From a virus: a stretch of 53,711 nt of DNA. The DNA is taken from positions 1-53,711 of IMG/VR virus record IMGVR_UViG_3300017734_000008. The stretch is one strand, 5' to 3'. Positions 1,214 to 17,739 of this stretch are shown here, piece after piece. How positions within the stretch are numbered: position 1 is the stretch's first letter; every line of letters begins with the position of its first letter. Under the pieces are notes generated by a model. That model was not told the DNA's origin. It made no database searches and saw nothing but the letters and a program-made list of their open reading frames with translations. Both the position numbers and the translations under genes were made by a program.

Positions 1214-1857
1214 GCTACTTAAACGCAAACATACCTGTGGAATATGCACAGATAAGAAGGGAGTATCTTTATGATCTTAAAAAACATCATGGAGAAGTTG
1301 AAGACTGCATTATCTTCGGTATATCAGCTATTACGGGGCGTAGTCCTCTTTTTCATTGTATTATGGAAAATGGAGCTGTCTTCTACCGTTTACCAATATC
1401 TGCATTCATTCAAAGAGGCTTTAAACCGAATGATGTTCCTAAACGTAGGCTTGATGAGTTGGTTCTATGGAACTGTTTTAGTTATTATCCTGCTGTTCAT
1501 TCTTGGGACATTTTAGAATCACAAGCTGGTAAATACATCGGTAAAGATAAAAAATGGCATCATGGTAAATATTTATTTACAATTGATTTTGCTCATCCTG
1601 ATCCAAACATTCTAGATACTGATCATTCTGAAATACCACACGAACATAAGTGTGCACATGTATTGGCATTAGATGACGGTAACTATGCAGCACAACCTAA
1701 CAATAGATTAATTTGGGATATTCCATCTTTTACTGTAAAAGATAATATTCCAGATTGGAAAGTACAAACAAATGAATGGAATGTTGAGGATACGAGTAAA
1801 TGGAGAACTGAAGACACAGATAAATTCTTTTATGAAATAGAAGAAAAGAAAAAATGA
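1210..1857 (+). CDS. Conserved phage hypothetical protein (215 aa)
   Basis: A 215-aa soluble protein starting MSYLNANIPVEYAQIRREYL, with conserved-looking blocks HHGEVEDCIIFGISAITGR, GAVFYRLPISAF and a Trp/Tyr-rich centre (LWNCFSYYPAVHSWD). I recognise this as a conserved protein of uncultured marine phages without an assigned function. It sits between the membrane peptides and the oxygenase/endolysin genes, with ATGA overlaps at both ends, so it is co-translated with them. No signal peptide or membrane helix is visible. Confidence 0.9.
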   Translation: MSYLNANIPVEYAQIRREYLYDLKKHHGEVEDCIIFGISAITGRSPLFHCIMENGAVFYRLPISAFIQRGFKPNDVPKRRLDELVLWNCFSYYPAVHSWDILESQAGKYIGKDKKWHHGKYLFTIDFAHPDPNILDTDHSEIPHEHKCAHVLALDDGNYAAQPNNRLIWDIPSFTVKDNIPDWKVQTNEWNVEDTSKWRTEDTDKFFYEIEEKKK

Positions 1858-2375
1858 AAATTAAAACATTAGTAAAGAGTAAAATAGAACAAGACTATCT
1901 CTTTGTAGAATCAATAATTGAAACAGATGTAGACTATTTAAAGAAAAAAATAGATATGTTAGTTTCTAATAGCAACAATCCCATAGGAAGCATAAGAGGA
2001 TTGAGCACTGATTGGAAAGCTTTCTGCGATGATGAAATCTTTCTAAGATCTTTGTTTCCTTTATTTGATTATTTAGAAAATAAAATAAAAGCCAAACCTT
2101 TTATGTTGACAGAAGCATGGGGTCTTAAAGAGGGACTAGGTGGTTTTACTGCTGCACACGATCATTTTCCTGCATATTTATCAGGAGTATTATACTTAAA
2201 CGACCATGAACAATTATTAAATTTTCCTGAAATAGATAGACAAGTTCAACCAGCTGCTGGTAAACTAGTTCTATTCTCAGGATTTTTAAAACATTATTGT
2301 GATAGAATTACTGAAAATAAATTTAAGTACGCTATATCTTTTAATTTTAGCGTTCAAACCGATGGAGGTAAATAA
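1854..2375 (+). CDS. 2OG-Fe(II) oxygenase-like protein 1
   Basis: A 173-aa protein whose C-terminal half matches the double-stranded beta-helix of 2-oxoglutarate/Fe(II) oxygenases of the PF13759 kind: AAHDHFPAYLSGVLYL (iron ligands and the LSGVxYL strand), a second His in FLKHYCDRI, and a final KYAISFNFS strand where a basic residue would bind 2-oxoglutarate (Lys here rather than the commoner Arg). Such enzymes hydroxylate peptides, nucleic acids or small molecules; the substrate here is unknown. First of six related folds in the window. Coupled by ATGA overlap to the upstream gene. Confidence 0.75.
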   Translation: MKIKTLVKSKIEQDYLFVESIIETDVDYLKKKIDMLVSNSNNPIGSIRGLSTDWKAFCDDEIFLRSLFPLFDYLENKIKAKPFMLTEAWGLKEGLGGFTAAHDHFPAYLSGVLYLNDHEQLLNFPEIDRQVQPAAGKLVLFSGFLKHYCDRITENKFKYAISFNFSVQTDGGK

Positions 2376-2378
2376 ATT

Positions 2379-2852
2379 ATGAAGCTAACAGCTAACATAA
2401 CCTTAGACGAGCTTACCAAAAGCCAAATAGCAGAGCGTAAGGGAATAAATAACAATCCTAACCCTGCACAGATAGAAAATTTAAAAGCATTAGCTACAAA
2501 CATATTGCAACCAGTGAGATCTCATTTTGATAAACCATTAATTATATCATCAGGATTCCGTTGTGCCCAGCTGTGCATAGAAATAGGTAGCGTACCCACC
2601 AGTCAGCACGTGGCAGATGACAATGCAGCCGCAGCAGACTTTGAGATACCTGGTGTAGATAATAGAGAGCTAGCTCTTTGGATTAAATCAGAACTAGACT
2701 ATGATCAACTTATATTAGAATTTTACAAAGATAACGAACCTACGTCTGGCTGGATTCACTGTAGTTATTCTACAGATCGCAATAGAAGTCAATCATTACG
2801 AGCTCAAAGAGTTGATGGTAAAGTATCTTATACTCCTTGGTTAGAGGGATAA
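2379..2852 (+). CDS. Endolysin: M15A-type D-Ala-D-Ala carboxypeptidase/L,D-endopeptidase
   Basis: A 157-aa protein with the peptidase M15 zinc signature: SSGFR (about 58-61), SQH followed by AAADFE (zinc ligands H77 and D87) and WIHCSY with H127. The family cuts peptidoglycan stem peptides, and in phages it is the cell-wall lysis enzyme. No signal peptide or membrane helix is visible, so a holin or similar would be needed for release; candidates are the small membrane proteins upstream and at 51088. It starts three bases after the oxygenase stop and ends at a TAATG junction. Confidence 0.85.
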   Translation: MKLTANITLDELTKSQIAERKGINNNPNPAQIENLKALATNILQPVRSHFDKPLIISSGFRCAQLCIEIGSVPTSQHVADDNAAAADFEIPGVDNRELALWIKSELDYDQLILEFYKDNEPTSGWIHCSYSTDRNRSQSLRAQRVDGKVSYTPWLEG

Positions 2853-3394
2853 TGTTTCCTTTAAACAAAGTTGAAGTAATTGATAATATTTTGACTCAAA
2901 GCTCAAATGTTGATTTAATTACTTATCTTATCAAACAAAATAATTGGGGATTCACTGAGGAAAAACCTTACGATGCCTTAGAAGGAGCTAATCATTTATT
3001 TGATTGTTTTACAAAAAATAAATCTTTTGGTTTATCTTGTCCAACTTTATTGAATAATAAACAGGTAACCGAAACACCTTTAAACATTTACGCAAAAATT
3101 ATTTTGGATACTGTAATGGAAAAAATAAATTTAAAATATAAAAGTATTTTTAGATTCTATTGGAACTATTATTTTCCAGGTAATAGTGCAGTTGAACACA
3201 TAGATCACTCAAACTTCGATCATATTTCAATAATATATAACCCACATACAAGTGAGGGCGGTACTAAAATCGATGGGAAATTTTATCCAGACGTAATGGG
3301 ACAAGCAAAAGTTTTTAATAGTGCAACGTTACATCAAGGTATTATTCAAGAAAAAGGGTATAGATTTAATTTGAATATTATAGTAAAATTATAA
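2852..3394 (+). CDS. 2OG-Fe(II) oxygenase-like protein 2
   Basis: A 180-aa protein with the full oxygenase pattern in its C-terminal half: HIDHSNFDHISIIYNP (HxD iron ligands), SATLHQG (second His) and GYRFNLNIIV (Arg for 2-oxoglutarate). I chose the ATG at 2852, which shares a base with the endolysin stop, rather than an upstream alternative codon at 2837 inside the endolysin. Substrate unknown; the closest look-alikes are cyanophage and pelagiphage oxygenases. Confidence 0.75.
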   Translation: MFPLNKVEVIDNILTQSSNVDLITYLIKQNNWGFTEEKPYDALEGANHLFDCFTKNKSFGLSCPTLLNNKQVTETPLNIYAKIILDTVMEKINLKYKSIFRFYWNYYFPGNSAVEHIDHSNFDHISIIYNPHTSEGGTKIDGKFYPDVMGQAKVFNSATLHQGIIQEKGYRFNLNIIVKL

Positions 3395-3395
3395 T

Positions 3396-3767
3396 ATGCC
3401 AATAGGAAGATCACAGATACCAAAACAAATTGAAGGAAAGTTAAGAGGTGCTCGTGACGAAAAAAGAAAAGTCAAATTATATTCAAACGGTGGAAATCCT
3501 AGAGTAGGCACAGGTAAAAAACCTAAGGGTTCGGGTAGAAGACTTTATACAGATGAAAACCCAAGAGATACTGTTCGTATAAAGTTTACCACACCATCTG
3601 ATGCTAGAGCCACGGTAAAAAAAGTTAAAAATATCAATAAACCATTTGCTAGAAAAATACAGATATTAACTGTTATGGAGCAACGTGCTAAAGTAATGGG
3701 AAAAAGACAGGTGGTTAATATTGCAAACCAAGCCAAAAAACAAATTCGCAAAACTCGTAAGGTCTAG
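3396..3767 (+). CDS. Small basic hypothetical protein (MPIGRSQI type)
   Basis: A 123-aa, strongly basic protein starting MPIGRSQIPKQIEGKLRGA, with Lys/Arg-rich segments throughout and a C-terminus QAKKQIRKTRKV. The N-terminal motif recurs in small proteins located near head-tail genes of marine phages. Basic composition suggests DNA or RNA binding or a virion role; no domain is recognised. Near its end is a run of six A (3735-3740), after which the +1 frame stays open (see the next entry). Confidence 0.8.
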   Translation: MPIGRSQIPKQIEGKLRGARDEKRKVKLYSNGGNPRVGTGKKPKGSGRRLYTDENPRDTVRIKFTTPSDARATVKKVKNINKPFARKIQILTVMEQRAKVMGKRQVVNIANQAKKQIRKTRKV

Positions 3768-3867
3768 AACATTTCGACCGAAAGTGATACAATCCAAGAA
3801 GTTGTACAACCGTAAAAAGGAGAAGAATGTCTCTTCCAATGCGGCCGCACAAGAAAATAAGGAGTAA
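3721..3867 (+). CDS. Candidate overlapping basic ORF or +1 frameshift extension
   Basis: The frame one base after that of the 3396 gene is open from about 3697 to the stop at 3865-3867 and has no ATG; a TTG at 3721 preceded by an AGGTGG-like site could start a 48-aa basic protein. It reads RSRTFRPKVIQSKKLYNRKK then a polar tail, which looks like real protein and resembles small Lys-rich phage proteins. It could be a separate gene, the remnant of a longer gene, or a frameshift extension at the A6 run. It would fill the otherwise empty 100 bases before 3870. Confidence 0.3.
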   Translation: MQTKPKNKFAKLVRSRTFRPKVIQSKKLYNRKKEKNVSSNAAAQENKE

Positions 3868-3869
3868 AA

Positions 3870-4253
3870 ATGACAAAACTTTGTCCGAGAGGGAAAGCAG
3901 CAGCAAAGCGAAAATTCGCTGTGTATCCCTCAGCATATGCTAACGCCTACGCATCTAAAATCTGCGCTGGAAAAATTAAAGATCCATCTGGTGTAAAAAG
4001 AAAAGATTTTAAAGGACCTAAACCTGCTATGAAAGGTGGCATGATGAAATATGCTAAGGGGGATCAGGTTAAAGTAAATAAAGTTGCTGGAGCTTTAAGA
4101 AAAGCATCTAAGTTACATGCTGCGCAAGCAAAAGTTTTAAGCACAGTAAAAGCAAGTGAAGGAAAATATATTGGTTCATACATAAAAAGTGAAATAGATG
4201 GTAAAAAAATTTCTAATAAGTCTTATGAGTCTTATTACAAAGGTATGATCTAA
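3870..4253 (+). CDS. DUF5872-like basic protein
   Basis: A 127-aa lysine-rich protein beginning MTKLCPRGKAAAKRKF, followed by VYPSAYANAYASKICAGKI. The CPRGKAAAKRKF ... YPSAYAN ... C pattern is one I associate with the DUF5872 family, common in marine phages and large viruses, usually encoded near structural genes. Function is not established; a DNA-associated virion protein is a reasonable inference. A clear AAGGAG site lies 6 bases before the ATG, and the stop overlaps the next start (TAATG). Confidence 0.75.
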   Translation: MTKLCPRGKAAAKRKFAVYPSAYANAYASKICAGKIKDPSGVKRKDFKGPKPAMKGGMMKYAKGDQVKVNKVAGALRKASKLHAAQAKVLSTVKASEGKYIGSYIKSEIDGKKISNKSYESYYKGMI

Positions 4254-4834
4254 TGGCTAGAGGAACTTGCTGGGTAGGATACGAACAAAAAGGAATGAAG
4301 AAAAAAGGAAATAAAATGGTTCCAAATTGTGTTCCAGCAGGAATGAAAAAAGGTGGTTTAAAAGATTGGTTTGCTCAGAAGTGGGTAGACATAGGATCAA
4401 AGAAAAAAGGTGGGGGATTTAGAGAATGTGGAAGAAAATCTGCGAGTTCATCAAAACGAAAATATCCAAAGTGCGTGCCTGCTGCAAAAGCAGCAAGCAT
4501 GACAGACTCTCAAAGGAGGAGTGCCGTTGTAAGAAAAAGAGCTAAGGCACAAGGTGTAGGTGGTAAACCTACTAATGTAAAAACAATTTTGAAAAGAGAT
4601 GTTGGTGGAACTATAAAAATACCAAGTTATAAAAAAGGAAAATTTGGATTTAATTTATTTGAAGTTTCAAATTTACAAATAGACCCTAATTTAGCAAATT
4701 TAGAAAAAAATATTAGGAAGTCAAAAGCAAAAATTAATCCTGAATTAAATTACGGTACAATTTATAAAAAGGGAGAGTTGAATATAGGTATTAACAAAGA
4801 TAGACTAAGAATAGGATTTAAAAAGAGGTTTTAA
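4253..4834 (+). CDS. Basic Cys-containing protein related to its neighbour
   Basis: A 193-aa basic protein starting MARGTCWVGYEQKGMKKKG and continuing MVPNCVPAGMKKGG, then GGGFRECGRKS ... RKYPKCVPAAKAASM. The two C..CVPA blocks look like repeats of a short Cys-containing module, reminiscent of the CPRGKAAAKRK protein just upstream. The C-terminal 60 residues are polar and less basic. Likely a virion-associated or nucleic-acid-binding protein of marine phages; function unknown. Coupled to the upstream gene by TAATG. Confidence 0.75.
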   Translation: MARGTCWVGYEQKGMKKKGNKMVPNCVPAGMKKGGLKDWFAQKWVDIGSKKKGGGFRECGRKSASSSKRKYPKCVPAAKAASMTDSQRRSAVVRKRAKAQGVGGKPTNVKTILKRDVGGTIKIPSYKKGKFGFNLFEVSNLQIDPNLANLEKNIRKSKAKINPELNYGTIYKKGELNIGINKDRLRIGFKKRF

Positions 4835-4836
4835 TT

Positions 4837-5535: not shown

Positions 5536-5975
5536 TGGCTAAATACGCAAACGGCACTAGATCACAAGCAATATCTGATAGAAGTGGACAAGCCTTCCCA
5601 TATCAAGAAATGGTAACTGAGTGGAACGGATCTTTTGTTCATATTTCTGAATTTGAATCAAAACACCCTCAGATAAGAAGGAAAAGGGTTACCGCTGATG
5701 CAATTGCTTTACAAAAAGTTAGACCTATGAGATTTCAACAACCTAAAACTGTAGCTTCTAACGATGTTACATTAGCTGATTCAGGAGGTACTTCAGTTGG
5801 TGTAGCTAACTTAACTTTACCTGGAGACTTTGCTTTTGAAACTTTTGAAACTGAAGTTACAAGTAACGGAATTACAACAAGTTTACAAACAATGACACCA
5901 AGAGATCCATCTTTACAAAACAGAAGAAGAGAAGCTTCTTCTAGAGTAGGGTCTGTAACAGTGAGCATATCATAA
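5535..5975 (+). CDS. Conserved structural protein (146 aa)
   Basis: A 146-aa protein: MAKYANGTRSQAISDRSGQA and FPYQEMVTEWNGSFVHISEF at the N-terminus, ESKHPQIRRKR in the middle and a Ser/Thr/Val-rich beta-type second half. It lies between two adaptor-like genes with one-base start/stop overlaps at both ends. I recognise it as a conserved gene of marine phage head-tail modules without a firm function; a minor head-tail protein is the best guess. Confidence 0.65.
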   Translation: MAKYANGTRSQAISDRSGQAFPYQEMVTEWNGSFVHISEFESKHPQIRRKRVTADAIALQKVRPMRFQQPKTVASNDVTLADSGGTSVGVANLTLPGDFAFETFETEVTSNGITTSLQTMTPRDPSLQNRRREASSRVGSVTVSIS

Positions 5976-6628: not shown

Positions 6629-6647
6629 ATTTAATTAAGGAGAAAAA

Positions 6648-7085: not shown

Positions 7086-7104
7086 TTTAAAGGAGGTACC
7101 TGCT

Positions 7105-8074: not shown

Positions 8075-9499
8075 ATGTCAGCTTATTCTACAGATCTAAA
8101 ACTCGAATTAATGGTAACTGGCCAAAACGCTGGTACTTGGGGTGATAAAACAAACACAAATTTAAATTTAGTTCAACAAGCTATTGCAGGTTTTGAACAA
8201 GTTACATTATCAAGCGGTGGAACTTTAGCATTGGTAATGAGTAATGCTACTTTATCGAACGCAAGAAATATGGTAATTAAATTTGCTACTGCATCTATTG
8301 CATCTAGCACAGTTTGTACGATACCTGATGGCATAGAAAAATATTATATTTTTGATTGCACAGGTTTAACTAATCCAACTAACTTAACAATTAAAACTGC
8401 TTCAGGAACAGGTTTTTCTCCTGACAGAGCAGCGATATTTGGTGCTTACGCAGACGGCACAAATTTAAAAGAAATTTCTTTAGACACTATGGGCGGAACT
8501 ATAGCTGCAGCTCAAATTGCATCTGATGCTGTAACAACTGCAAAAATTTTACAATCAAACGTTACACAAAATAAAATGGCAACAAACTCTGTAGGAACTG
8601 CACAAATTCTACAGTCAAACGTAACTACAGCTAAACTTGCAGCAAACTCTGTAACATCAAATCAAATTACACAATCAAACGTAACCTTAACAAAAATGGC
8701 AGCCAACTCCGTTGGACCAAGCCAATTACAATCTACAGCAGTAACAGCAGGATCATATACACTTGCTTCAATTACAGTTGATGAGGACGGAAGATTAACC
8801 GCAGCGTCAACAGGAACTGCAGGTGGAGGAAATATGAGACTTACTACAATGATTACTAGTAACGATCAAATAACACCCTCACCACTTTTAGTAGACACTA
8901 CGAACGGAAAGTCGGGCACATTTACTGCAAATCCAAACAGTTCTAAAATTCATTTATACGCAAGAGGCGGTGGAGGAGGCCGAGGACCGAATCAATCTAA
9001 CCCTGGTCCAGCAAACACAAGAGGAGGACACGGTGGATTTGGTTTATTTGTAATTCCAATTTCACAACCGTACTCTGTGCCTTTTTCTATTGGTGCCATC
9101 CCAGTACAACCTATGGGACCTACACAACCATTTACAAACGGTAACCCAGTTGTTTGGAACACAAACATCATTTGCACAGGTGGTCAATCAGGAAGATCGG
9201 GTGGTTCACCAGGACCAGGTGCTCCAGGCAGAGCAAACACTGGACCCGTAGATCCAGATTATGATTTTTCTACAAAACCTGATGGCAATACAGCTGCAAA
9301 TAGTGACGGAGTTGGATATTTTATGATGAAATTTCCAATGACAAATTCTCCTGATAACAGCTATGCGTACTTTCCTACAGTTAATAACGCATCAGCAGCT
9401 TTGATACCTGGTGAAGCACAAGAAATTGGAGGTGGTGCAGGGCAAACGCAAAATACTGGTTCACTTGGCGGTTTTATGATATTTGAGGATATAGGATAA
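8075..9499 (+). CDS. Tail fibre / receptor-binding protein candidate
   Basis: A 474-aa protein. The N-terminus (STDLKLELMVTGQNAGTWGD) is a conserved phage-side domain in marine tail fibres. Residues about 150-215 contain tandem units such as NSVGTAQILQSNVTTAKLAA and NSVTSNQITQSNVTLTKMAA, a fibre shaft pattern. The C-terminal 200 residues are Gly/Pro-rich (ARGGGGGRGPNQSNPGP, SGRSGGSPGPGAPGR), like adhesin tips such as phage S16 gp38 where polyglycine helices display variable loops. Likely the host-recognition protein; specificity cannot be read from sequence. Confidence 0.7.
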   Translation: MSAYSTDLKLELMVTGQNAGTWGDKTNTNLNLVQQAIAGFEQVTLSSGGTLALVMSNATLSNARNMVIKFATASIASSTVCTIPDGIEKYYIFDCTGLTNPTNLTIKTASGTGFSPDRAAIFGAYADGTNLKEISLDTMGGTIAAAQIASDAVTTAKILQSNVTQNKMATNSVGTAQILQSNVTTAKLAANSVTSNQITQSNVTLTKMAANSVGPSQLQSTAVTAGSYTLASITVDEDGRLTAASTGTAGGGNMRLTTMITSNDQITPSPLLVDTTNGKSGTFTANPNSSKIHLYARGGGGGRGPNQSNPGPANTRGGHGGFGLFVIPISQPYSVPFSIGAIPVQPMGPTQPFTNGNPVVWNTNIICTGGQSGRSGGSPGPGAPGRANTGPVDPDYDFSTKPDGNTAANSDGVGYFMMKFPMTNSPDNSYAYFPTVNNASAALIPGEAQEIGGGAGQTQNTGSLGGFMIFEDIG

Positions 9500-9933
9500 T
9501 GGCAAAATTATTTTTTTCTAGCCCTGATTTAGAACCCTGTGGTTGCGTACACGCAACTAAAACAGAGGCGGATGAAAGTTACATCAATAACAAAGAAGGT
9601 TTAACTGTAATTGAAGTAAGTGATTCAGATTATGACAACTTTTTCGATGGTACAAGTGCAATAGAATGCAATGGAAACAATGTTTCATTTGTGACAAACA
9701 CCATTGACGAAACACAAGAAGTTGAAGATGAATACAAAAATGATTTTTCTGTATTCAAAGCTACGCTTGAAGGAAAAGTGGCATACAAAACAAATCACTC
9801 AAAAATAGCAGAAGCACAGGCTTGTTTAAATTACTTAAACTCAGTAGATGTAGATAATCAGACTTATCCAAGAACACCATTAAGAAAAGAACTTAAAGAT
9901 AATGGAGTTTTTGTTGCATTACACTGTTTTTAA
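9499..9933 (+). CDS. Hypothetical protein downstream of fibre
   Basis: A 144-aa acidic protein starting MAKLFFSSPDLEPCGCVHAT, with no domain I recognise; the second half is helical and charged (VFKATLEGKVAYKTNHSKIA). Its start shares a base with the fibre stop. Genes in this position are often fibre assembly chaperones or additional adhesins, but that is positional inference only. Confidence 0.6.
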   Translation: MAKLFFSSPDLEPCGCVHATKTEADESYINNKEGLTVIEVSDSDYDNFFDGTSAIECNGNNVSFVTNTIDETQEVEDEYKNDFSVFKATLEGKVAYKTNHSKIAEAQACLNYLNSVDVDNQTYPRTPLRKELKDNGVFVALHCF

Positions 9934-9945: not shown

Positions 9946-10707
9946 ATGATGTTTTCATCATCAAAACACATAAAATTCATATATCCAAATTCAACACATG
10001 AAATATTTAAAGATATAGATCCTGTTCCTATTTCTGAAAACATACCTGATTGGTATAAAAAATTAAAACATAAAATTAATAGTAAAACTTTGAAAGGATG
10101 CATGCCTTTTTTAGATTCTTTAACAGCAGGATATCTTTTAAAAATGCCACAAGATATGATTTTGCGTTTTAATGTAAAAAAAGAAGATGGTAAAAGAGAC
10201 ACTTTTACAGGTTTTTCATATTCTGACGTAGAAACACTTTGCAGAGGATTTATGCTAAATGTTAATGATTCTATAATTCAAGCTCACCCCGTGCATCAAT
10301 TAGGAACTGAGTGTCCATATGTCAAACAAAATAAATCTCAACCAATTATTAAAATTTTAAATCCTATTATGATACAAACTCCACCAGGTTACTCATGTTT
10401 ATTTTTACCACCTTTACACAGTGATGAAGATAGGTTTCAAATAATACCTGGCATTGTAGATACGGACCTATATCCTTCAACTATTAATTTTCCAATAGTT
10501 GTAAATGGATCAAAGTATGATGAATTAGATACGATTATTAAAAGGGGAACACCTTATGCACAAGTAATACCTTTTAAAAGAGACAATTGGACATCTTCTG
10601 TAGAGGAAAGACCAAGGTTGAATTTTATGAGTGGACTTGTTAAATTAAAAGGACATTTATACAAAAACTATCAAAAACTATTTTGGCGTAAAAAAAAATG
10701 GAATTAA
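9946..10707 (+). CDS. Conserved hypothetical protein (DUF6065-like)
   Basis: A 253-aa protein with PISENIPDWYKKLKH near the N-terminus, followed by CMPFLDSLTAGYLLKMPQDM and a Pro-rich middle (IQTPPGYSCLFLPPLH). The IPxWYK plus PF-D-xxxxGY pattern resembles the DUF6065 family of cyanophage and marine phage proteins, which are usually encoded beside 2OG-Fe(II) oxygenases, as here. No iron-binding HxD motif is clear. Function unknown. It overlaps the next gene by ten bases. Confidence 0.65.
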   Translation: MMFSSSKHIKFIYPNSTHEIFKDIDPVPISENIPDWYKKLKHKINSKTLKGCMPFLDSLTAGYLLKMPQDMILRFNVKKEDGKRDTFTGFSYSDVETLCRGFMLNVNDSIIQAHPVHQLGTECPYVKQNKSQPIIKILNPIMIQTPPGYSCLFLPPLHSDEDRFQIIPGIVDTDLYPSTINFPIVVNGSKYDELDTIIKRGTPYAQVIPFKRDNWTSSVEERPRLNFMSGLVKLKGHLYKNYQKLFWRKKKWN

Positions 10708-11282
10708 AAGATTTTATAAAAGTGTATGACAATACATTATCCCCTAAAATAATTGGATCATTAATAAAATATTTAAATGATAAAGGTGATTTCTACGATG
10801 CCTCAATTGTTGGTTCTGATGTAAAAAAACGTGAAGTTCATAAAAAAGTTAGAGACACAAAAACACATGATTTTGGAAACAAAAACACTATGACAGATAC
10901 TCACTGGACACATTTTTTGACAAATGTATTCAGACAATGTGCGCATAAGTATGAAAAAGATGTAGGTAGCGCAACAGGAACGTTAGCACAAAGAATTACT
11001 AATGTTACTGCCTTGAAATATGGTGAAGGAGGACATTACGTTCCTCACGTTGATCATGGTCACGATGTGCCTAGGACACTAAGTATAATTTATTTTTTAA
11101 ATAATGATTATGAGGGTGGGGATTTAAGATTTCATAATCCTGATAAAAATTCAGAGGTTTATAAAACAGTAACAAGTGCACCTGGCAGAGTAATTATTTG
11201 GCCTTCAAATTTTTTATATCCACACTCAGTAACTCCAGTCACAAAAGGAAAGAGGTTTGTATTAGTATCATGGTTGCTTTAA
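10698..11282 (+). CDS. 2OG-Fe(II) oxygenase 3, prolyl 4-hydroxylase-like
   Basis: A 194-aa protein with the clearest oxygenase signature in the window: LKYGEGGHYVPHVDHGHD (HxD iron ligands), LSIIYFLNNDYEGGDLRF (the conserved L.Y.N..[FY]xGG strand), LYPHSVTPV (second His) and KGKRFVLVSWL (basic 2-oxoglutarate ligand). This layout is that of prolyl 4-hydroxylase-type enzymes common in cyanophages. Substrate unknown; a tail or capsid protein, or a host factor, would be plausible. Confidence 0.85.
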   Translation: MELKDFIKVYDNTLSPKIIGSLIKYLNDKGDFYDASIVGSDVKKREVHKKVRDTKTHDFGNKNTMTDTHWTHFLTNVFRQCAHKYEKDVGSATGTLAQRITNVTALKYGEGGHYVPHVDHGHDVPRTLSIIYFLNNDYEGGDLRFHNPDKNSEVYKTVTSAPGRVIIWPSNFLYPHSVTPVTKGKRFVLVSWLL

Positions 11283-11815
11283 ATAAATTATCATATAAAT
11301 TTGTTCCAGGTTTACTAAGCCAAGATGAGATAGCTCTGATTAGATCATACTGCAAAAAAAGACATTATGAAAATTTTGATAGCTTTGACGTAATGCAAAA
11401 TAATAACGGTGATACTTACTTTTATAAAGATCTTTTAATGCAAACAATCCTAGAATTAAAAAAACCTATTTTTGAAAAAGCAACTGGTATTGATCTGCTA
11501 GAAACTTATACTTTTTGGAGATGTTATACATACAATGCTATTTTAGAAAAACACAAAGATCGTCCTTCATGTGAAATTAGTGCAACAGTTTGTATTGATT
11601 CTGATCATTACGATTGGCCAATATACATGGATGGTAAACCTTTAGTTCTACAAGCTGGTGATGCCGTAATATATAATGGTTGTGATGTCGAGCATTGGAG
11701 AGAGGCTTTTCCTGGGGATTATCATATGCAAGTATTTCTACATTATGTAGATGCTAAAGGACCTTATAAAGACCATAAAGGAGACCAAATAAATGAAAAT
11801 AGTCCAAGATCCTGA
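11270..11815 (+). CDS. 2OG-Fe(II) oxygenase-like protein 4
   Basis: A 181-aa protein: TFWRCYTYNAILEKHKDRPS (HxD ligands), a strand ISATVCIDSD, DAVIYNGCDVEHWREAF (second His) and DYHMQVFLHYVDA at the end. The EHWRE ... QVFLHY ending is a variant seen in marine phage oxygenases; there is no clear Arg in the usual 2-oxoglutarate position. The frame extends upstream to 11198, but ATG 11270, overlapping the previous stop by 13 bases, gives the natural N-terminus (MVALNKLSYKFVPGLLS). Confidence 0.7.
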   Translation: MVALNKLSYKFVPGLLSQDEIALIRSYCKKRHYENFDSFDVMQNNNGDTYFYKDLLMQTILELKKPIFEKATGIDLLETYTFWRCYTYNAILEKHKDRPSCEISATVCIDSDHYDWPIYMDGKPLVLQAGDAVIYNGCDVEHWREAFPGDYHMQVFLHYVDAKGPYKDHKGDQINENSPRS

Positions 11816-12005: not shown

Positions 12006-12019
12006 TGGTATAATTCCGT

Positions 12020-14200
12020 ATGCCTTTAGCAAAAGTAAATATAGCACCAGGATTCGACAAACAATCCACACCTGCGGATGCAGAGGGTAGGTTTGTTGAT
12101 GGTGACAATATTAGGTTTAGATATGGCGAACCTGAAAAAATAGGTGGGTGGCAAGCTCTTGTAAACGAAAAATTAGTTGGAGCAGCAAGAGCACAGCACG
12201 TTTGGGCTAATACTGAAGGAAAAAAATATGCTGCTATTGGAACTGATAAGGTATTAATAATATATTTTGGTGGTGCCTTTTATGACATTACTCCTTTAGA
12301 TACTGACAATTTTTCTACAGGTGCAGATATTACAACGACCAACGGATCAGCAACAATTACAATTACTACAACAGCAGCACATAATTTAGCTGTGGGTGAT
12401 TTAATTACTTTTGCAAACGCTGGGTCTTTTACGGGTGCAAATACAGATTTCACAGCTTCTGACTTTGACGACAAACTTTTTGAAGTAAAGTCTGTACCAA
12501 CAATTACAACCTTAACAATTACTATGCCATCATCAGAAAGCAAATCAGGTGTAACTAATGACGGAACACTTGATGTAAGACCTTATGTAACCGTTGGACC
12601 GTTAACACAAAGTGCAGGATATGGATGGGGAACTTATCTTTGGGGTGGACGTACAGTGGCACAAGTTACTACAACCGTAAATAATGGAGGAGTAATGTTG
12701 ATAGGTGCTACTTCGGTAGTTTTAACCAGCACCGCTAGTTTTCCAAGCTCAGGGAAAATAAGAATTGGTTCAGAAGATATGAGCTATACTTCTAACAATA
12801 CGGGAACAAACACAATTAGCGGAATTTCTAGAGGAATAAATTCAACAACAGCTGTAGAGCACGCCAATGGTTCTACTGTAACAGATATTTCAGAATACAT
12901 AGGATGGGGTGATGCCTCTACCTCTAGCACAGTGACTATTGATCCAGCAAATTGGTCTTTAGATAACTTTGGAAATTTTTTAATTGCTACAGTGCATAAT
13001 GGTGAAACATTTACTTGGGATGCTGCAGCAAGTAACGCTTTACAAACTAGAGCTGTTATTGGCACAGGGATGCCAACTAAATCTGTAATGACTATTGTTT
13101 CTGATAGAGATAGACATCTTTTTCATTTAGGTACAGAAACAACAATTGGAACACCTTCATCTCAAGATAAGATGTTTATAAGATTTTCTGATCAAGAAAA
13201 CAAAAGTGATTATGCACCTACTTCAACGAACACCGCAGGAACATTTAAACTAGACGATGGAACACAAATTGTAGGAGCTTTCAAAGGTAAAGATTATATT
13301 TTAGTTTTAACAGATACTGCTGCGTATGAAATGCAATTTGTAGGACCGCCTTTTACTTTTTCTATAAGAAAGGTTGGATCTAATGCTGGTTTGTTAGGAC
13401 AACATGCAGGGGTATTTGCAAATGGTGCAGTCTTTTGGATGGGAAAAACAGGGGGATTTTTTGTATATGATGGTACAGTAAAATCACTACCATGTCTTGT
13501 AGAAGATTTTGTATTTACCACATCAGGAAACAACCCAGGTATAAATTTTGATTCAGGGCAAATAGTTTATGGTGGAATAAATGAATTGTATTCTGAAATA
13601 AATTGGTTTTATCCTTCATCAGGTTCTACAAACATAGATAAAGTTGTTACCTATAATTATGCTGAAAACGTTTGGACCACTGGTACTTTAGACAGGACCA
13701 CTTGGATGGGATCTACTGTATTTGAGGTACCTTATGCAACAGATTTTGAAGCCAATGATACTCCTACCTTTCCTGTTGTAAGTGGGGTATCTAATGGTGC
13801 AACAATTTATTACGCACATGAAATAGGTGTAAACCAACTCAATGGAGATGGCACAACTACAGCTATTCCAGCGTTTATAAAATCAGGTGAGTTTGATTTG
13901 AATGGTAGGCAGGGAGTTCCAGGAGATGGAGAGTTTTTAATGAGTGTAAAAAGATTTATGCCTGACTTTAAAAGAATTAGCGGTAATGCAAAAGTAACAA
14001 TATTTTTAAATGCTTTTCCTCAAGGAAGCACTGCAGCCTCTAGTCCACTTGGTCCATTCACTGTTACATCGAGTACAACAAAAATTGACACTAGAGCTAG
14101 AGCTAGATTAGCTGCTGTACAAATAGAATGTGATAGCGTTGATGAAACTTGGAGATATGGCACTTTTAGATTTGATGTAAGAGTAGATGGAAGAAGGTAA
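12020..14200 (+). CDS. Large tail/stabilisation protein (P22 gp10-like role)
   Basis: A 726-aa beta-rich protein. The N-terminus MPLAKVNIAPGFDKQST leads into FVDGDNIRFRYGEPEKIGGW, a block I recognise from a conserved tail protein of marine podovirus-like phages, often annotated as a packaged-DNA stabilisation or tail hub protein. Residues about 95-230 look like an inserted Ig-like Thr-rich domain; the centre has Trp/Gly blocks (YGWGTYLWGGRT) and NVWTTGTLDRTTWM typical of propeller-like strands. It probably forms the distal tail hub between adaptors and fibres. Ends at a TAATG junction. Confidence 0.7.
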   Translation: MPLAKVNIAPGFDKQSTPADAEGRFVDGDNIRFRYGEPEKIGGWQALVNEKLVGAARAQHVWANTEGKKYAAIGTDKVLIIYFGGAFYDITPLDTDNFSTGADITTTNGSATITITTTAAHNLAVGDLITFANAGSFTGANTDFTASDFDDKLFEVKSVPTITTLTITMPSSESKSGVTNDGTLDVRPYVTVGPLTQSAGYGWGTYLWGGRTVAQVTTTVNNGGVMLIGATSVVLTSTASFPSSGKIRIGSEDMSYTSNNTGTNTISGISRGINSTTAVEHANGSTVTDISEYIGWGDASTSSTVTIDPANWSLDNFGNFLIATVHNGETFTWDAAASNALQTRAVIGTGMPTKSVMTIVSDRDRHLFHLGTETTIGTPSSQDKMFIRFSDQENKSDYAPTSTNTAGTFKLDDGTQIVGAFKGKDYILVLTDTAAYEMQFVGPPFTFSIRKVGSNAGLLGQHAGVFANGAVFWMGKTGGFFVYDGTVKSLPCLVEDFVFTTSGNNPGINFDSGQIVYGGINELYSEINWFYPSSGSTNIDKVVTYNYAENVWTTGTLDRTTWMGSTVFEVPYATDFEANDTPTFPVVSGVSNGATIYYAHEIGVNQLNGDGTTTAIPAFIKSGEFDLNGRQGVPGDGEFLMSVKRFMPDFKRISGNAKVTIFLNAFPQGSTAASSPLGPFTVTSSTTKIDTRARARLAAVQIECDSVDETWRYGTFRFDVRVDGRR

Positions 14201-14364
14201 TGGCTAAAATAACAATACAAATACCTGAACCCAAATCTCAATATTCTCAAGAAGATCAAAGACAAATTCTACAAGCATTCAGAACTTTGCAGTCTCAGTT
14301 GAACTTCTCATATGAGAATGATATAAAAAATAAACAGGATGCATTTACTTACTTTTTATCATGA
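14200..14364 (+). CDS. Small hypothetical protein (54 aa)
   Basis: A 54-aa ORF, MAKITIQIPEPKSQYSQED at the start, helix-prone QILQAFRTLQSQLNFSYEN in the middle. It starts in the stop of the 726-aa gene and ends in an ATGA overlap with the next gene, so it is tightly packed in the tail operon. Probably a small virion or assembly protein; no family recognised. Confidence 0.75.
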   Translation: MAKITIQIPEPKSQYSQEDQRQILQAFRTLQSQLNFSYENDIKNKQDAFTYFLS

Positions 14365-14702
14365 CAATACAATACAAAAATCAAGGAATTAATTTAACTA
14401 CAACAGACACAACATCTATTTTGTCTTGTCCAACAAGTGCTACTTTTTTATTAAAACAAATTCAGATAGATAATTCTAGTAGTAATCCAGTAAGCTTGTC
14501 AGTGCAAGTTACAGACACTTCAGCTTCAGCTACTTTTTCTATATCTAGAAAAGAAATAGCAGCAAATACTGTTTCAAATATAATTACTCAAACCTTAGTT
14601 CTTGAGGGAGGTGATATACTTAAAATGACAGCGGGCACGGCAAATGAAATACAGGGTATAATATCTTACGCACAAATAGATAGATCGCAGGAAAATGGCT
14701 AA
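14361..14702 (+). CDS. Small beta-rich structural protein (113 aa)
   Basis: A 113-aa protein with Ser/Thr-rich strands: MTIQYKNQGINLTTTDTTS, FLLKQIQIDNSSSNPVSLSV, EGGDILKMTAGTANEIQGI. The pattern (a response to local strand-turn-strand repeats ending in a T-A-N-G/E-I-G segment) resembles small tail or decoration proteins found next to the tail hub gene of marine phages. Coupled by ATGA overlap upstream and an 8-base overlap downstream. Confidence 0.7.
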   Translation: MTIQYKNQGINLTTTDTTSILSCPTSATFLLKQIQIDNSSSNPVSLSVQVTDTSASATFSISRKEIAANTVSNIITQTLVLEGGDILKMTAGTANEIQGIISYAQIDRSQENG

Positions 14703-14829
14703 GAAGAAACCTATGTTTGGGGTAAATAATTATCACAAACGAACACCAAAGAAACGGCCTGGTCAGCATGCCAAAAGTTATAGTAAAAGAATTTCCTCGC
14801 GTAAGAAATATATTGGACAAGGACGTTAG
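14695..14829 (+). CDS. Conserved 44-aa Lys/Arg-rich protein
   Basis: A 44-aa protein, MAKKKPMFGVNNYHKRTPKK then RPGQHAKSYSKRISSRKK, ending YIGQGR. I recognise this as a very conserved tiny basic protein of pelagiphages and cyanophages (the HKK..KRPG.H.KS..K ... GQGR pattern), of unknown role, possibly DNA- or RNA-binding or packaged in virions. It overlaps the previous stop by 8 bases. Confidence 0.8.
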   Translation: MAKKKPMFGVNNYHKRTPKKRPGQHAKSYSKRISSRKKYIGQGR

Positions 14830-14848
14830 TATAGTATAAATAAATTTT

Positions 14849-15025
14849 ATGACAGTTTACCACAAAATTAAATGCGAAACAAAAACGATTTATAGAAGTA
14901 TGAAAACAGGGGAGAGGTACGAAACAAAAGAGGCTTTTTTGAAAGAACACCCCCAAGAAGATTTAGCCACTGATGTTGAAGTACAGGTTCCTGACCTTCC
15001 CATGTTTAGTAAAACTCAAAAATGA
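14849..15025 (+). CDS. Small hypothetical protein (58 aa)
   Basis: A 58-aa ORF, MTVYHKIKCETKTIYRSMK at the start and DVEVQVPDLPMFSKTQK at the end, ending in an ATGA overlap with the next oxygenase gene. The SMKTGERYETKEAFLKEHP segment looks like a folded alpha/beta protein with charged surface. The stop-start coupling is the main evidence; function unknown. Confidence 0.7.
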   Translation: MTVYHKIKCETKTIYRSMKTGERYETKEAFLKEHPQEDLATDVEVQVPDLPMFSKTQK

Positions 15026-15474
15026 GTCCTTATATAGATATTCGTTACGATATCTTTTCTAATAATGAAATAAACAAAATGTTAATGGGATTTCATTCTA
15101 ATCAAAACAATTTAAAAAAATATAGAGATACGTTTGTTCTGTCACTTGAAGGTCAAGATCTGCCTTGGCTCAATAAAAAATATGAACCTTATGTGTATGA
15201 TAATACAATTTCATGGACGCAAATGGTTTTATGGCCAAACGGGTCTTCACAAAAATTACACGTTGATGATCGTGAGAAAGATATAACAATTGCATCTATT
15301 ACGTTTTTGAATGATAATTTTGATGGAGGCGAGACTTATTTTGGAGAGGGAACTATAGTAAGACCCTTTAAAAATAAAACAATCTTTTTTACAGGTAAGG
15401 AATTAATTCATGGAGTAAAGAAAGTTACCAACGGTGAAAGATACACTATTGCAACTTGGTATAAAAAAAAGTAA
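15022..15474 (+). CDS. 2OG-Fe(II) oxygenase 5
   Basis: A 150-aa protein with a canonical motif set: SSQKLHVDDREKDI (HxD), TIASITFLNDNFDGGETYFG (the LND.F.GGE.Y strand), ELIHGVKKV (second His) and GERYTIATWY (Arg for 2-oxoglutarate). One of the smallest yet most complete oxygenases in the window. It follows a coupled small gene and precedes another oxygenase by nine bases. Confidence 0.85.
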   Translation: MSPYIDIRYDIFSNNEINKMLMGFHSNQNNLKKYRDTFVLSLEGQDLPWLNKKYEPYVYDNTISWTQMVLWPNGSSQKLHVDDREKDITIASITFLNDNFDGGETYFGEGTIVRPFKNKTIFFTGKELIHGVKKVTNGERYTIATWYKKK

Positions 15475-15483
15475 AACTTAAAG

Positions 15484-15990
15484 ATGATTTGCACACAAAT
15501 AGATAATTTTTTTGAATTACCTGAAGTAATCTATGCAGAAGCTAAAAAAACAAAATTATATTCTTTGAACGAACACCCTGACCGCATAGGTAAAAAAGAT
15601 TTAACAAGTTGGCCTGGAAAGAGAAGTGAAGAATTAGGTGATGTTAATCCATTATTTAAATATCACATTATGAAATATCTTACTATTTCGAATATAAATG
15701 TGCGAGGTAGAGATGTAAGTTTATATATTCACGCTAGAAATGCAAGTGATATGGCAGATGATTTTATTCATTCAGATGAGTGCTTGTACTCAATGTTAAT
15801 TTATTTAAGTAATACAAACCTAAACAGCGGTACGAAATTTTTTGATACCGAAGATCAAATGGTAAACGATTTTAAGTTTGTAAAAAATAGGTTAGTATGG
15901 TTTGATGCAAGATATAGACATACAGCTTACGGTCATCACGGAGATAATATTGACAACTGTAGATTAACTATAAATGGATTTATAAGATGA
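15484..15990 (+). CDS. 2OG-Fe(II) oxygenase-like protein 6 (DUF6445-like)
   Basis: A 168-aa protein with DDFIHSDECLYSMLIYLSN (HxD followed by the Y-L strand), NSGTKFFDTED, LVWFDARYRHTAYGHHG (second His) and CRLTINGFI (Arg). The IHSDE ... YLS ... GT.F pattern fits the DUF6445-type branch of the 2OG-Fe(II) fold. Start chosen at ATG 15484. Its stop overlaps the glycosyltransferase start (ATGA), linking the oxygenases to the glycosyltransferases in one transcript. Confidence 0.75.
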   Translation: MICTQIDNFFELPEVIYAEAKKTKLYSLNEHPDRIGKKDLTSWPGKRSEELGDVNPLFKYHIMKYLTISNINVRGRDVSLYIHARNASDMADDFIHSDECLYSMLIYLSNTNLNSGTKFFDTEDQMVNDFKFVKNRLVWFDARYRHTAYGHHGDNIDNCRLTINGFIR

Positions 15991-16925
15991 AACCATCAGG
16001 CGGAACTGAACTACAATATAAATTTTTAAAACAGTATGTTTCAGAAGATATTTTAGATCAATGTCAAATTTGTTTATCTGTACCAGGACAAGTTCCTCTT
16101 TCTGCAAATAAGATAAATATACTTTGGCAAAAGATGGCTCTCGATCAACCACACTTTCAACAATTTTTTAAAGATAAAGAACAAATAAATCAATATGATT
16201 ATTATGTATTTAATTCACATTGGAATTACGAACAATTTAGAAAGACCTTTGATATACCAGCTGAAAAAAGCACAGTAATAAAAAATGGTATACCTGAAAT
16301 AAAATTAAGAGATCCAAAACCAAAAAGAGAAAAAATTAAATTAATTTATCATCCAACTCCTTGGAGGGGATTATCTGTTTTATTAGGGGCTATGCAATTA
16401 GTAAAAAATCCTAACATTTCACTAGATGTTTACAGTAGCACAAAAGTTTATGGCAGTGATTTTGAAAAAGATAATGATGATGGATATAAAAAATTATATG
16501 AACAAGCGGAAAATTTACCTAATGTAAATTATATAGGATACAAACCTAATGAATATATATTAGATAATCTGCATACTTATGATGCTTTTGTTTATCCTAA
16601 TATTTGGGAAGAGTCTTTCTGTATATCTGCTCTTGAATCTTTGGCTTGTGGTCTCTATGTAGCAACAACGGACAACGGAGCACTTTATGAGACTTGTTCT
16701 GAGTTTCCAGTTTACATACCCACGGATAAAAATTATAGAAATTTAGCTATGCAATTTGCATCTGTAATTGATGGAATACCTGAACAAATTAATGATGAAC
16801 AATTACACATACATCTTAAGTTTCAACAAAACTTTTTTAATCATTTTTATAGCTGGAAGTCTATAGGTGACCAATGGAAAAGATTTTTAGAAGGAGCAAT
16901 CAATGCAAAACGAACAAGACCCTAG
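15987..16925 (+). CDS. Glycosyltransferase, GT4-like (GT-B fold)
   Basis: A 312-aa protein resembling the GT4 family. An N-terminal part holds NSHWNYEQFRKTFDI and VIKNGIPEI; the C-terminal domain starts with KLIYHPTPWRGLSVLL and has NVNYIGYKPN and the nucleotide-sugar-binding region FVYPNIWEESFCISALESLA (the E-x7-E pattern of retaining GT-B enzymes). It would transfer a sugar from an activated donor to an unknown acceptor: host surface glycan, virion protein or a hydroxylated residue made by the neighbouring oxygenases. The N-terminal domain looks shortened relative to usual GT4 enzymes. Confidence 0.75.
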   Translation: MKPSGGTELQYKFLKQYVSEDILDQCQICLSVPGQVPLSANKINILWQKMALDQPHFQQFFKDKEQINQYDYYVFNSHWNYEQFRKTFDIPAEKSTVIKNGIPEIKLRDPKPKREKIKLIYHPTPWRGLSVLLGAMQLVKNPNISLDVYSSTKVYGSDFEKDNDDGYKKLYEQAENLPNVNYIGYKPNEYILDNLHTYDAFVYPNIWEESFCISALESLACGLYVATTDNGALYETCSEFPVYIPTDKNYRNLAMQFASVIDGIPEQINDEQLHIHLKFQQNFFNHFYSWKSIGDQWKRFLEGAINAKRTRP

Positions 16926-17739
16926 TAAGCCAATTTGGTTTAATGAACCAAAAAAAGAAATAAAAACTGAAAAACTTAAACCTAAAAAGTTTTCTATTTT
17001 TGTAGCCACACCTGTACATAGTGATGTTTCTATACATTACTTTCAAGCTTGTTTGGAGTTTCAAAAACATTGTGTAACTAACGATATCCAAGCATCATTT
17101 CAAGTTATGAAATCGTCTTTGATTACTCAAGGTAGAAATTTATGTGTATCAAGTTTTATGCAGAGCAACCATACTCATTTATTGTTTATAGACTCAGACA
17201 TTGAGTTTCAAACACAATCTATTTTTAAAATGATAGCATCAGATAAAGAAGTCATTTCTGTGCCTTATCCATTAAAGCAACTTTTTTGGGACAAAGCTTG
17301 GGAAAGAATATCAAAAGGTAATATTAAGAATGCTAAAGATTTAAAGTTTAAGGGATTATATTCGTATCCAATGAAGGTTGAAGATGATAAAAATATAAAA
17401 ATAAAAGATGGTGTCATTGAGGTTACACACTCACCCACGGGATGTATGCTTATTAAAAGAGAAGCACTAGAGAAAATGATCAAAGCTTATCCTGAAAAAG
17501 AAATAGTTCAAAAGTCTGTTATTAATGGTGAGTTAATAAAAGTACCGTTTTTATATAATCTTTTTGATACAGAATTTGACCCCAAAACAAAAAACTACCT
17601 TGGTGAAGACTTTGCGTTTTGTAAAAGATGGAAACAAATTGGTGGTAAATGTTATGCCTTAATAACCGACCGAATAACACATGCTGGCGAACATCAGTAT
17701 AGGGGCTGTTTTGCTGATGAGTTGATAAAGACTGAGTAA
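16903..17739 (+). CDS. Glycosyltransferase, GT2-like (GT-A fold)
   Basis: A 278-aa protein with KFSIFVATPVHSDVSIHYFQ, ITQGRNLCVSSFMQS, the DxD-type motif THLLFIDSDIEF, and a C-terminal TGCMLIKREALEKM, FDTEFDPKTKNYLGEDFAFC and HAGEHQYRG. These are the landmarks of a compact GT-A glycosyltransferase: DSD binds metal and nucleotide sugar, GEDFAFC supplies the catalytic acid. It overlaps the upstream GT by 23 bases. The Lys-rich N-terminal 30 residues are linker-like. Confidence 0.75.
   Translation: MQNEQDPSKPIWFNEPKKEIKTEKLKPKKFSIFVATPVHSDVSIHYFQACLEFQKHCVTNDIQASFQVMKSSLITQGRNLCVSSFMQSNHTHLLFIDSDIEFQTQSIFKMIASDKEVISVPYPLKQLFWDKAWERISKGNIKNAKDLKFKGLYSYPMKVEDDKNIKIKDGVIEVTHSPTGCMLIKREALEKMIKAYPEKEIVQKSVINGELIKVPFLYNLFDTEFDPKTKNYLGEDFAFCKRWKQIGGKCYALITDRITHAGEHQYRGCFADELIKTE

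What the first reader, a model, noticed from the sequence alone, without database searches (positions are those of the whole stretch)
1854..17739. Six 2OG-Fe(II) oxygenase-like genes with two glycosyltransferases inside the virion gene block
Genes at 1854, 2852, 10698, 11270, 15022 and 15484 each show an HxD/HxH ... H ... R/K beta-helix pattern, and two glycosyltransferases (15987, 16903) follow by ATGA overlap. The six differ in subtype, so this is not simple tandem duplication. Hydroxylation followed by glycosylation (as on hydroxyproline, hydroxylysine or modified bases) would be a plausible two-step virion or DNA decoration system. Family assignments come from motif reading; the pathway is inference.
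Basis: partly seen in the sequence, partly recalled or inferred. Interest (0 to 1): 0.72.

Follow-up and report, generated by a model that had tools for sequence, protein, structure and literature searches.

The report
Tail-fibre-tip hydroxylase cassette in pelagiphage
This ocean bacteriophage carries six small iron-dependent hydroxylase-type genes and two sugar-transferase genes among its virion genes; such sets were already known in its group, but two of the hydroxylases turn out to be swapped between phages together with the variable tip of the tail fibre, which makes the tip their most likely target, and one of them has been mislabelled 'ferrochelatase' in marine phage records.

Summary
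All six genes are 2OG-Fe(II) oxygenase-like: three by Pfam, two by profile comparison, one (11270) by predicted structure. Both glycosyltransferases (GTs) are real. The motif alone would not have shown it: about 15% of shuffled ORFs carry it.

The window is an HTVC023P-type pelagiphage. Multiple non-orthologous 2OG oxygenases plus GTs are already published for this group (PMC9599517).

New here: (1) The gene at 11270 belongs to the family labelled 'ferrochelatase' in marine phages (156 phage records carry a relative). Its model (pLDDT 93) is a prolyl-hydroxylase-type fold; there is no ferrochelatase signal. (2) Genes 10698 and 11270 follow every Gly/Pro-rich fibre tip tested (27/27), and are fused into one protein in a cyanophage. 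(3) They vary with the fibre tip (Mantel r 0.47-0.62; other cassette genes 0.65-0.83), not with the flanking core. The GTs follow the core instead (r about 0.9).

This splits the proposed hydroxylase-then-GT pathway into two modules. Best reading, inferred: ox3/ox4 hydroxylate the phage's own receptor-binding tip; the GTs and their variable neighbours form a separate decoration system of unknown target. DNA modification is not supported. No chemistry has been shown.

The parts
1854..2375 (+). ox1: PF13759-type 2OG-Fe(II) oxygenase (HxH...H...K)
   Evidence: Pfam 29.7 bits over cut-off, phrog_81 2.7e-19; invariant H102, H104, H147 in 16 aligned sequences
2379..2852 (+). M15-type peptidase gene lying between ox1 and ox2 (context; not part of the oxygenase set)
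   Evidence: homologue in HTVC023P is annotated peptidase M15; conserved in synteny
2852..3394 (+). ox2: divergent 2OG-Fe(II) oxygenase (H116, D118, H161, R171)
   Evidence: no Pfam hit; phrog_274 6.8e-12; hhalign to ox3 profile 98.1%, E 1.3e-13; invariant residues
8075..9499 (+). tail fibre: conserved N-terminal ~240 aa and hypervariable Gly/Pro-rich tip; proposed substrate of ox3/ox4
   Evidence: phrog tail-fibre hits; conservation drop along the protein; pooled class A tips 22.5% G, 8.6% P versus 7.5% G, 1.4% P in the N-terminal part; PF21722 found in equivalent fibres of some relatives
9499..9933 (+). 144-aa partner gene directly after the fibre; co-varies with the tip
   Evidence: 1-bp overlap with the fibre stop; tip-partner Mantel r=0.65-0.73
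9946..10707 (+). phr7084: unknown protein of the tip cassette; weak dUTPase-like jelly-roll model
   Evidence: phrog_7084 3.9e-40; AF2 pLDDT 83.8; Foldseek best dUTPase E 1.8e-3, not significant; tip-phr7084 r=0.78-0.80
10698..11282 (+). ox3: P4H-like 2OG-Fe(II) oxygenase (H117, D119, H176, R186)
   Evidence: Pfam PF13640 70.1 bits; PDB profile hits to Bacillus P4H E 7e-11, prolyl 3-hydroxylase 1, PHD2
11270..11815 (+). ox4: 'ferrochelatase'-labelled 2OG-Fe(II) oxygenase fold (H95, D97, H142)
   Evidence: phrog_2954 1.4e-47; AF2 pLDDT 92.7; Foldseek PDB top hits P4H 4j25/4iw3 E 2.8e-8; BFVD prolyl-hydroxylase-type hits; no ferrochelatase Pfam match at E<=1
12020..14200 (+). tail tubular/stabilisation protein (TTB): core gene immediately outside the cassette, used as backbone marker
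   Evidence: homologous to annotated phage stabilization proteins; tip-TTB Mantel r=0.15-0.17 in the larger sets
15022..15474 (+). ox5: PF13640 2OG-Fe(II) oxygenase (H80, D82, H130, R140)
   Evidence: Pfam 40.4 bits; phrog_2297 1.6e-24; hhalign to ox3 99.4%
15484..15990 (+). ox6: divergent 2OG-Fe(II) oxygenase (H96, D98, H146, R160)
   Evidence: PF13640 sub-threshold 1.3e-4, DUF6445 0.003; phrog_1644 1e-11, labelled minor coat protein; hhalign 93.6%
15987..16925 (+). GT1: GT-B glycosyltransferase (Glycos_transf_1) with conserved E-x7-E
   Evidence: Pfam 1.7e-15; motif conserved in 51 aligned rows
16903..17739 (+). GT2: GT-A-like glycosyltransferase with DSD and GEDFxFC motifs
   Evidence: phrog_1574 4.3e-37; PF03452 3.9e-5, sub-threshold; motifs invariant in 40-45 rows

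Best explanation
The six oxygenases and two GTs are two functionally separate sets in the virion block of an HTVC023P-type pelagiphage. Set 1, the fibre-tip cassette, comprises the tip end of the fibre, its 144-aa partner, phr7084, ox3 and ox4; some relatives add an ox1-type PF13759 enzyme just before TTB. This cassette is exchanged between phages as a unit. In this reading ox3 (P4H-like) and ox4 (divergent 2OG fold), a pair fused in some cyanophages, hydroxylate the phage's own Gly/Pro-rich receptor-binding tip while it folds, most likely on proline, tuning its stability or binding. Set 2 is GT1+GT2, a vertically inherited core pair, with a variable neighbouring slot: ox5 and ox6 here; carbamoyltransferase, O-methyltransferase or an extra GT in relatives. 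It makes and tailors a glycan, probably on a virion protein. Shown by computation: family membership, ox4 fold, cassette co-inheritance, ox3-ox4 fusion, separation of the two sets. Inferred: that the enzymes are active, that the tip is the substrate, which residue is hydroxylated, and the glycan target. The role of ox2 and of the window's own ox1, which lie upstream, is not resolved.
For: All 27 loci with a Gly/Pro-rich fibre tip carry both ox3 and ox4 between tip and TTB. In the common set of 18 loci, Mantel r of tip with partner is 0.65, ox3 0.62, ox4 0.47, against TTB 0.15, GT1 0.23, GT2 0.20 and the N-terminal part of the same fibre protein 0.31; tip-phr7084 is 0.80 (16 loci) and tip-adjacent ox1 0.83 (10 loci). 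GT1-TTB is 0.90, GT2-TTB 0.87, GT1-GT2 0.83. Pooled tips are 8.6% Pro and 1.2% Lys, versus 1.4% Pro and 4.1% Lys in the fibre N-terminal part. ox3's best PDB relatives are protein prolyl hydroxylases and ox4 has the same fold. ox4 and ox3 are fused in cyanophage ACG-2014f as one 362-aa protein in which both domains keep the HxD...H residues, and both map to one 453-aa S-SCSM1 gene. 2OG genes lie near Gly_rich_2 adhesin genes more often than rotation predicts: 28 of 114 versus 13.6 expected within 10 kb in 11 T4-like marine phages (p=0.006), and 8 of 8 versus 3.4 in four shorter genomes (p=0.02). The variable slots also hold carbamoyl-, sulfo-, O-methyl- and glycosyl-transferases, typical tailoring enzymes.
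Against: Co-inheritance could come simply from recombination at conserved flanks (fibre N-terminus and TTB), carrying whatever lies between. In class B phages such as HTVC027P the fibre lacks the Gly/Pro tip yet oxygenases, some ox3/ox4-like, are still there, on the opposite strand. About three quarters of 2OG genes in the T4-like marine phages tested are not near a Gly_rich_2 gene. ox4 lacks the usual 2OG-binding Arg/Lys (Q154) and ox1 has HxH, so activity is not assured. No experiment on any of these enzymes was found. Pro enrichment may be a property of this adhesin fold rather than of hydroxylation; no oxygenase-free control set was obtained.
Confidence: 0.42

Rival explanations
1. Auxiliary genes acting on the host: the oxygenases hydroxylate host proteins (for example EF-Tu or ribosomal proteins) or shift 2-oxoglutarate and iron metabolism during infection.
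For: ox4's closest structures include Pseudomonas P4H solved in complex with EF-Tu. Published authors read phage 2OG genes as AMGs that modulate 2OG (PMC3037559; PMC9602691), and HTVC027P infection upregulates host iron uptake (PMC12753301). Many 2OG genes in T4-like phages lie away from fibres.
Against: Does not explain why ox3/ox4 alleles follow the fibre tip rather than the backbone, nor their overlap with one another and with cassette cistrons inside the virion block.
Confidence: 0.2
2. Receptor modification and superinfection exclusion: the tip-linked enzymes alter the host receptor that this tip recognises, and the GT set modifies host surface glycan.
For: Also predicts coupling of tip and enzyme alleles; GT, carbamoyl-, methyl- and sulfotransferases could tailor a surface polysaccharide.
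Against: The genes lie in the virion block, where receptor change would come late (inference, no per-gene expression data read); P4H-type enzymes typically act on polypeptides rather than glycans (general knowledge); the GTs do not follow the tip.
Confidence: 0.15
3. Passengers of a hypervariable slot: the region between fibre and TTB is a recombination hotspot, and the enzymes there have unrelated functions.
For: The boundaries fit homologous exchange at conserved flanks; slot contents vary greatly.
Against: ox3 and ox4 are present with every Gly/Pro tip (27 of 27), are fused in cyanophages, and 2OG genes lie near Gly_rich_2 genes in other phage lineages.
Confidence: 0.15
4. DNA hypermodification: 2OG oxygenases hydroxylate bases and the GTs glycosylate them.
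For: GT1/GT2 relatives occur in T4-superfamily phages beside nucleotide-metabolism or clamp genes; some HTVC023P-type phages encode DNA hypermodification enzymes (PMC9599517).
Against: No thymidylate-synthase-family or C5-methyltransferase gene detected; the six resemble protein hydroxylases; carbamoyltransferase next to Glycos_transf_1 was on unmodified-DNA contigs in PMC8670742. The TET search is uninformative and the record may be a fragment.
Confidence: 0.06

Closest known systems
HTVC023P-type pelagiphage 2OG-Fe(II) and 'ferrochelatase' gene sets (PMC9599517, mSystems 2022)
   Same: Same phage group; eight non-orthologous 2OG genes reported, often near each other, with ferrochelatase partners next to them, plus glycosyltransferases
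   Different: That paper treats the partner as a ferrochelatase and makes no link to the fibre tip in the passages read; here it is a 2OG fold and part of a tip-linked cassette
T4-like cyanophage 2OG arrays (Syn9, S-CREM1, S-SCSM1 with 24 genes)
   Same: Runs of PF13640/PF13759 genes that include the ox4 family
   Different: Often outside fibre regions; functions unstudied; no 2OG protein is named among virion proteins of S-SCSM1
Bacterial prolyl 4-hydroxylases (Bacillus P4H 3itq/5hv0; Pseudomonas P4H 4j25/4iw3)
   Same: ox3 by sequence profile; ox4 by fold
   Different: Substrate untested; ox4 lacks the usual Arg/Lys
Mimivirus collagen lysyl hydroxylation and glucosylation (PMC9546862, title and abstract only)
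   Same: A virus encoding its own hydroxylase and glycosyltransferases for a viral collagen (works-like comparison; part from general knowledge)
   Different: Tips here are Lys-poor (1.2%); the oxygenases and GTs are separate modules; no collagen repeat
5-hydroxymethylcytosine carbamoyltransferase phages (PMC8670742)
   Same: Carbamoyltransferase in phage contigs
   Different: There paired with thymidylate synthase; here in relatives (not the window) it sits beside Glycos_transf_1, the arrangement that paper reports for unmodified contigs

Membership tests
2OG-Fe(II) oxygenase superfamily | Double-stranded beta-helix fold or profile membership | tested here: met
   ox1, ox3, ox5 over Pfam cut-off; ox2, ox6 by profile comparison; ox4 by structure
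2OG-Fe(II) oxygenase superfamily | 2-His-1-carboxylate iron triad HxD/E...H in ox2-ox6 | tested here: met
   Conserved in ox2, ox3, ox4, ox5, ox6 families
2OG-Fe(II) oxygenase superfamily | 2-His-1-carboxylate iron triad HxD/E...H in ox1 | tested here: not met
   ox1 has an invariant HxH...H instead; Pfam nonetheless places it in PF13759 above cut-off, so it is filed there as a variant
2OG-Fe(II) oxygenase superfamily | Arg/Lys that binds 2-oxoglutarate | tested here: inconclusive
   Present in ox2, ox3, ox5, ox6 and as K/R in ox1; ox4 has Q154 at that place, with R84 and R144 conserved elsewhere
2OG-Fe(II) oxygenase superfamily | Fe(II)- and 2OG-dependent hydroxylation activity | not testable with these tools
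   No assay possible
Ferrochelatase (label of the ox4 family) | Ferrochelatase Pfam domain PF00762 | tested here: not met
   No match at E<=1 although the control genomes ring; Foldseek top hits are 2OG enzymes
Protein prolyl 4-hydroxylase | Sequence or structural relatedness to P4H/PHD | tested here: met
   ox3 profile E 7e-11 to Bacillus P4H; ox4 fold
Protein prolyl 4-hydroxylase | Peptidyl-proline as substrate | not testable with these tools
   Tip is Pro-rich, but no chemistry was tested
TET/JBP DNA-hydroxymethylation system | Tet_JBP domain | tested here: inconclusive
   No match, but no control genome rang either
TET/JBP or T4-type DNA-hydroxymethylation system | C5-methyltransferase or nucleotide hydroxymethylase to supply the base | tested here: not met
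   No PF00145 or PF00303 match in the 53.7-kb record, which may be incomplete
Glycosyltransferases (GT1 as GT-B, GT2 as GT-A) | Pfam membership and catalytic motif | tested here: met
   GT1 Glycos_transf_1 1.7e-15 with E-x7-E; GT2 DSD motif invariant but Pfam score sub-threshold
Gly-rich phage adhesin (PF21722 Gly_rich_2) | Domain match in the receptor-binding tip | tested here: inconclusive
   Window fibre itself shows no hit; equivalent fibres of some class A relatives (L063, L070, L044, L017) and class C proteins do

The most novel reading that the evidence does not exclude
Marine phages mature their receptor-binding tips by post-translational hydroxylation: each Gly/Pro-rich tip allele travels with its own matched P4H-like enzyme pair (ox3+ox4, fused in cyanophages), so host recognition depends on a phage-encoded protein modification that sequence alone does not show.
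Probability: 0.3. Interest if true: 0.8.

Novelty: new member of a known kind. Interest (0 to 1): 0.45.

Why it matters
[quoted passage not shown] Linking one oxygenase pair to the fibre tip gives a direct, testable role. Correcting 'ferrochelatase' to a 2OG fold removes the basis for a published haem-related reading and bears on 156 phage records that hold the family. If the tip is hydroxylated, host range of these phages would depend in part on a modification invisible in sequence.

Tried and rejected
Motif reading as proof: rejected, too frequent by chance. One hydroxylase-to-GT pathway: weakened by module separation. DNA modification: not supported. 'Ferrochelatase' as haem enzyme: rejected for this family. 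phr7084 fold: only a weak, non-significant dUTPase-like match, so no function claimed. Pro-Gly motif enrichment in tips: XPG is no more common than in shuffled tips; a GxAPGA-type motif is in 10 of 27 tips (0.9 expected) but not in the window's, so not used. Host origin of GT1: genome-contig scan found no relative. Search of a Gly-rich adhesin protein against phages and PDB by sequence: no match, probably low-complexity masking. 2OG domains in long or GT-fused ORFs of the loci: none with a GT domain. GT1/GT2 relatives in T4-superfamily phages sit in both nucleotide-metabolism and structural contexts, so they do not decide the glycan target.


Full report
WHAT THE WINDOW IS. The window is a virus record of 53,711 bases. 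Its nearest isolates are Pelagibacter phages HTVC023P and HTVC027P, so it is an HTVC023P-type pelagiphage. The virion block from 1.8 to 17.8 kb has a layout like that of HTVC023P: tail genes, fibre, oxygenases, 'ferrochelatase', TTB, GT1, GT2, with some differences in order.

OBSERVATION. The six oxygenase calls stand. Pfam places ox1 (1854), ox3 (10698) and ox5 (15022) above cut-off, and ox6 (15484) just below. ox2 (2852) and ox4 (11270) have no Pfam hit. PHROGs links ox2 and ox6 to families also hit by ox3, and ox4 to two 'ferrochelatase' families. Profile comparison with the ox3 family gives 98% for ox2, 94% for ox6, 95% for ox1 and 99% for ox5, but 0.8% for ox4. For ox4 the structure decides: the model has mean pLDDT 92.7 and its best PDB matches are prolyl hydroxylases and other 2OG enzymes (E 2.8e-8); viral models give the same picture. 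No PF00762 match was found while control genomes rang. Relatives of ox4 occur in 156 phage records, many of those listed labelled ferrochelatase. Iron ligands are conserved in all six families, with two departures: ox1 is HxH rather than HxD, and ox4 has Gln where the 2OG-binding Arg/Lys is usual. The motif alone occurs in 15% of shuffled ORFs, so the confirmation rests on profiles and structure. GT1 and GT2 have conserved catalytic-type motifs.

WHAT IS ALREADY KNOWN. PMC9599517 reported, for this phage group, eight non-orthologous 2OG-Fe(II) genes, ferrochelatase genes always next to one, and glycosyltransferases. Cyanophages carry up to 24 2OG genes (PMC9602691). The gene set is therefore a new member of a known kind. 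No functional study was found.

TWO MODULES. Eighty loci around TTB were fetched and labelled. Fibres fall into three classes. Class A has a Gly/Pro-rich tip fused to the fibre. Class C has a separate Gly_rich_2 protein after the fibre. Class B has a short fibre followed by a collar-type protein, with oxygenases on the opposite strand. In all 27 class A loci, ox3 and ox4 follow the tip. Distance comparisons show a block: the tip co-varies with the partner, phr7084, ox3, ox4 and, where present next to TTB, an ox1-type gene. It does so far less with TTB, with the N-terminal part of the same fibre protein, or with the GTs. GT1 and GT2 follow TTB (r 0.90 and 0.87). The window's own ox1 lies upstream, outside this block, and was excluded from the ox1 test. 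Mantel p-values ignore shared ancestry among loci and should be read as indicative.

OX3 AND OX4 WORK TOGETHER (inference from fusion). They overlap by 13 nt in the window and are fused in cyanophage ACG-2014f (362 aa), where both domains keep the HxD...H residues. In S-SCSM1 both matches fall in one 453-aa gene. In HTVC008M, HTVC033P and Mosig, ox4 relatives lie in 2OG arrays beside fibre or Gly_rich_2 genes.

LINK TO GLY-RICH ADHESINS. In 11 long T4-like marine records holding both gene types, 28 of 114 2OG genes lie within 10 kb of a Gly_rich_2 gene, against 13.6 expected by rotation (p=0.006); record-level counts (9 of 11 versus 6.7) are not significant. In four shorter genomes it is 8 of 8 against 3.4 (p=0.02). 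Several of these records were chosen because they hold 2OG genes, and hotspot insertion could add to the effect. It is a tendency, not a rule.

THE GT SIDE. Between TTB and GT1 the relatives carry a changing set: ox5 or ox6 types, other PF13759 enzymes, carbamoyltransferase, O-methyltransferases and an extra sugar transferase; a sulfotransferase and another sugar transferase lie in the fibre-TTB gap. This looks like tailoring of a glycan next to a fixed GT pair. Relatives of GT1 and GT2 elsewhere sit both in nucleotide-metabolism regions and beside capsid or tail genes, so the target is open. DNA is disfavoured.

MECHANISM. My preferred reading: ox3 and ox4 hydroxylate the Gly/Pro-rich tip during folding. 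Tips are 8.6% Pro and 1.2% Lys, against 1.4% and 4.1% in the fibre's own N-terminal part, so Pro is the likelier residue. Shown: families, ox4 fold, cassette, fusion, module split. Inferred: activity, substrate, residue, effect. The strongest caution is that recombination at conserved flanks would also carry the enzymes with the tip.

Noticed in passing
window 11270-11815: The ox4 family is labelled ferrochelatase (PHROGs phrog_2954, phrog_3531, many phage records) but has a 2OG-Fe(II) oxygenase fold; 156 phage records hold a relative.
   Followed up: yes
window 2852-3394; PHROG phrog_274: PHROG phrog_274, named DNA endonuclease V, is matched by ox2, ox3 and ox6 and appears to be a 2OG oxygenase family.
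   Followed up: partly
window 9946-10707: phr7084, a cassette gene of unknown function with a weak dUTPase-like jelly-roll model, strongly tied to the fibre tip.
   Followed up: partly
window 51477-52064: Methyltransf_24-type methyltransferase near the portal gene.
   Followed up: no
L021:3852-5352, L041:8345-9271 and the ORF after it: Carbamoyltransferase split into two neighbouring ORFs (N- and C-terminal domains) between TTB and GT1; both domains were Pfam-matched in L021, only the N-terminal one was scanned in L041.
   Followed up: partly
L048:5125-5994: 290-aa protein combining DUF6817 with a 2OG-FeII_Oxy_3 domain in the GT-side slot.
   Followed up: no
L083 (HTVC027P) and L009, L026, L064, L065, L081: In phages with a short fibre and collar-type protein the oxygenase genes lie on the opposite strand.
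   Followed up: partly
window 1210-1857: Gene assigned to a PHROG named ferredoxin (phrog_3704, 3.7e-72) without a Pfam hit; the label looks doubtful.
   Followed up: no
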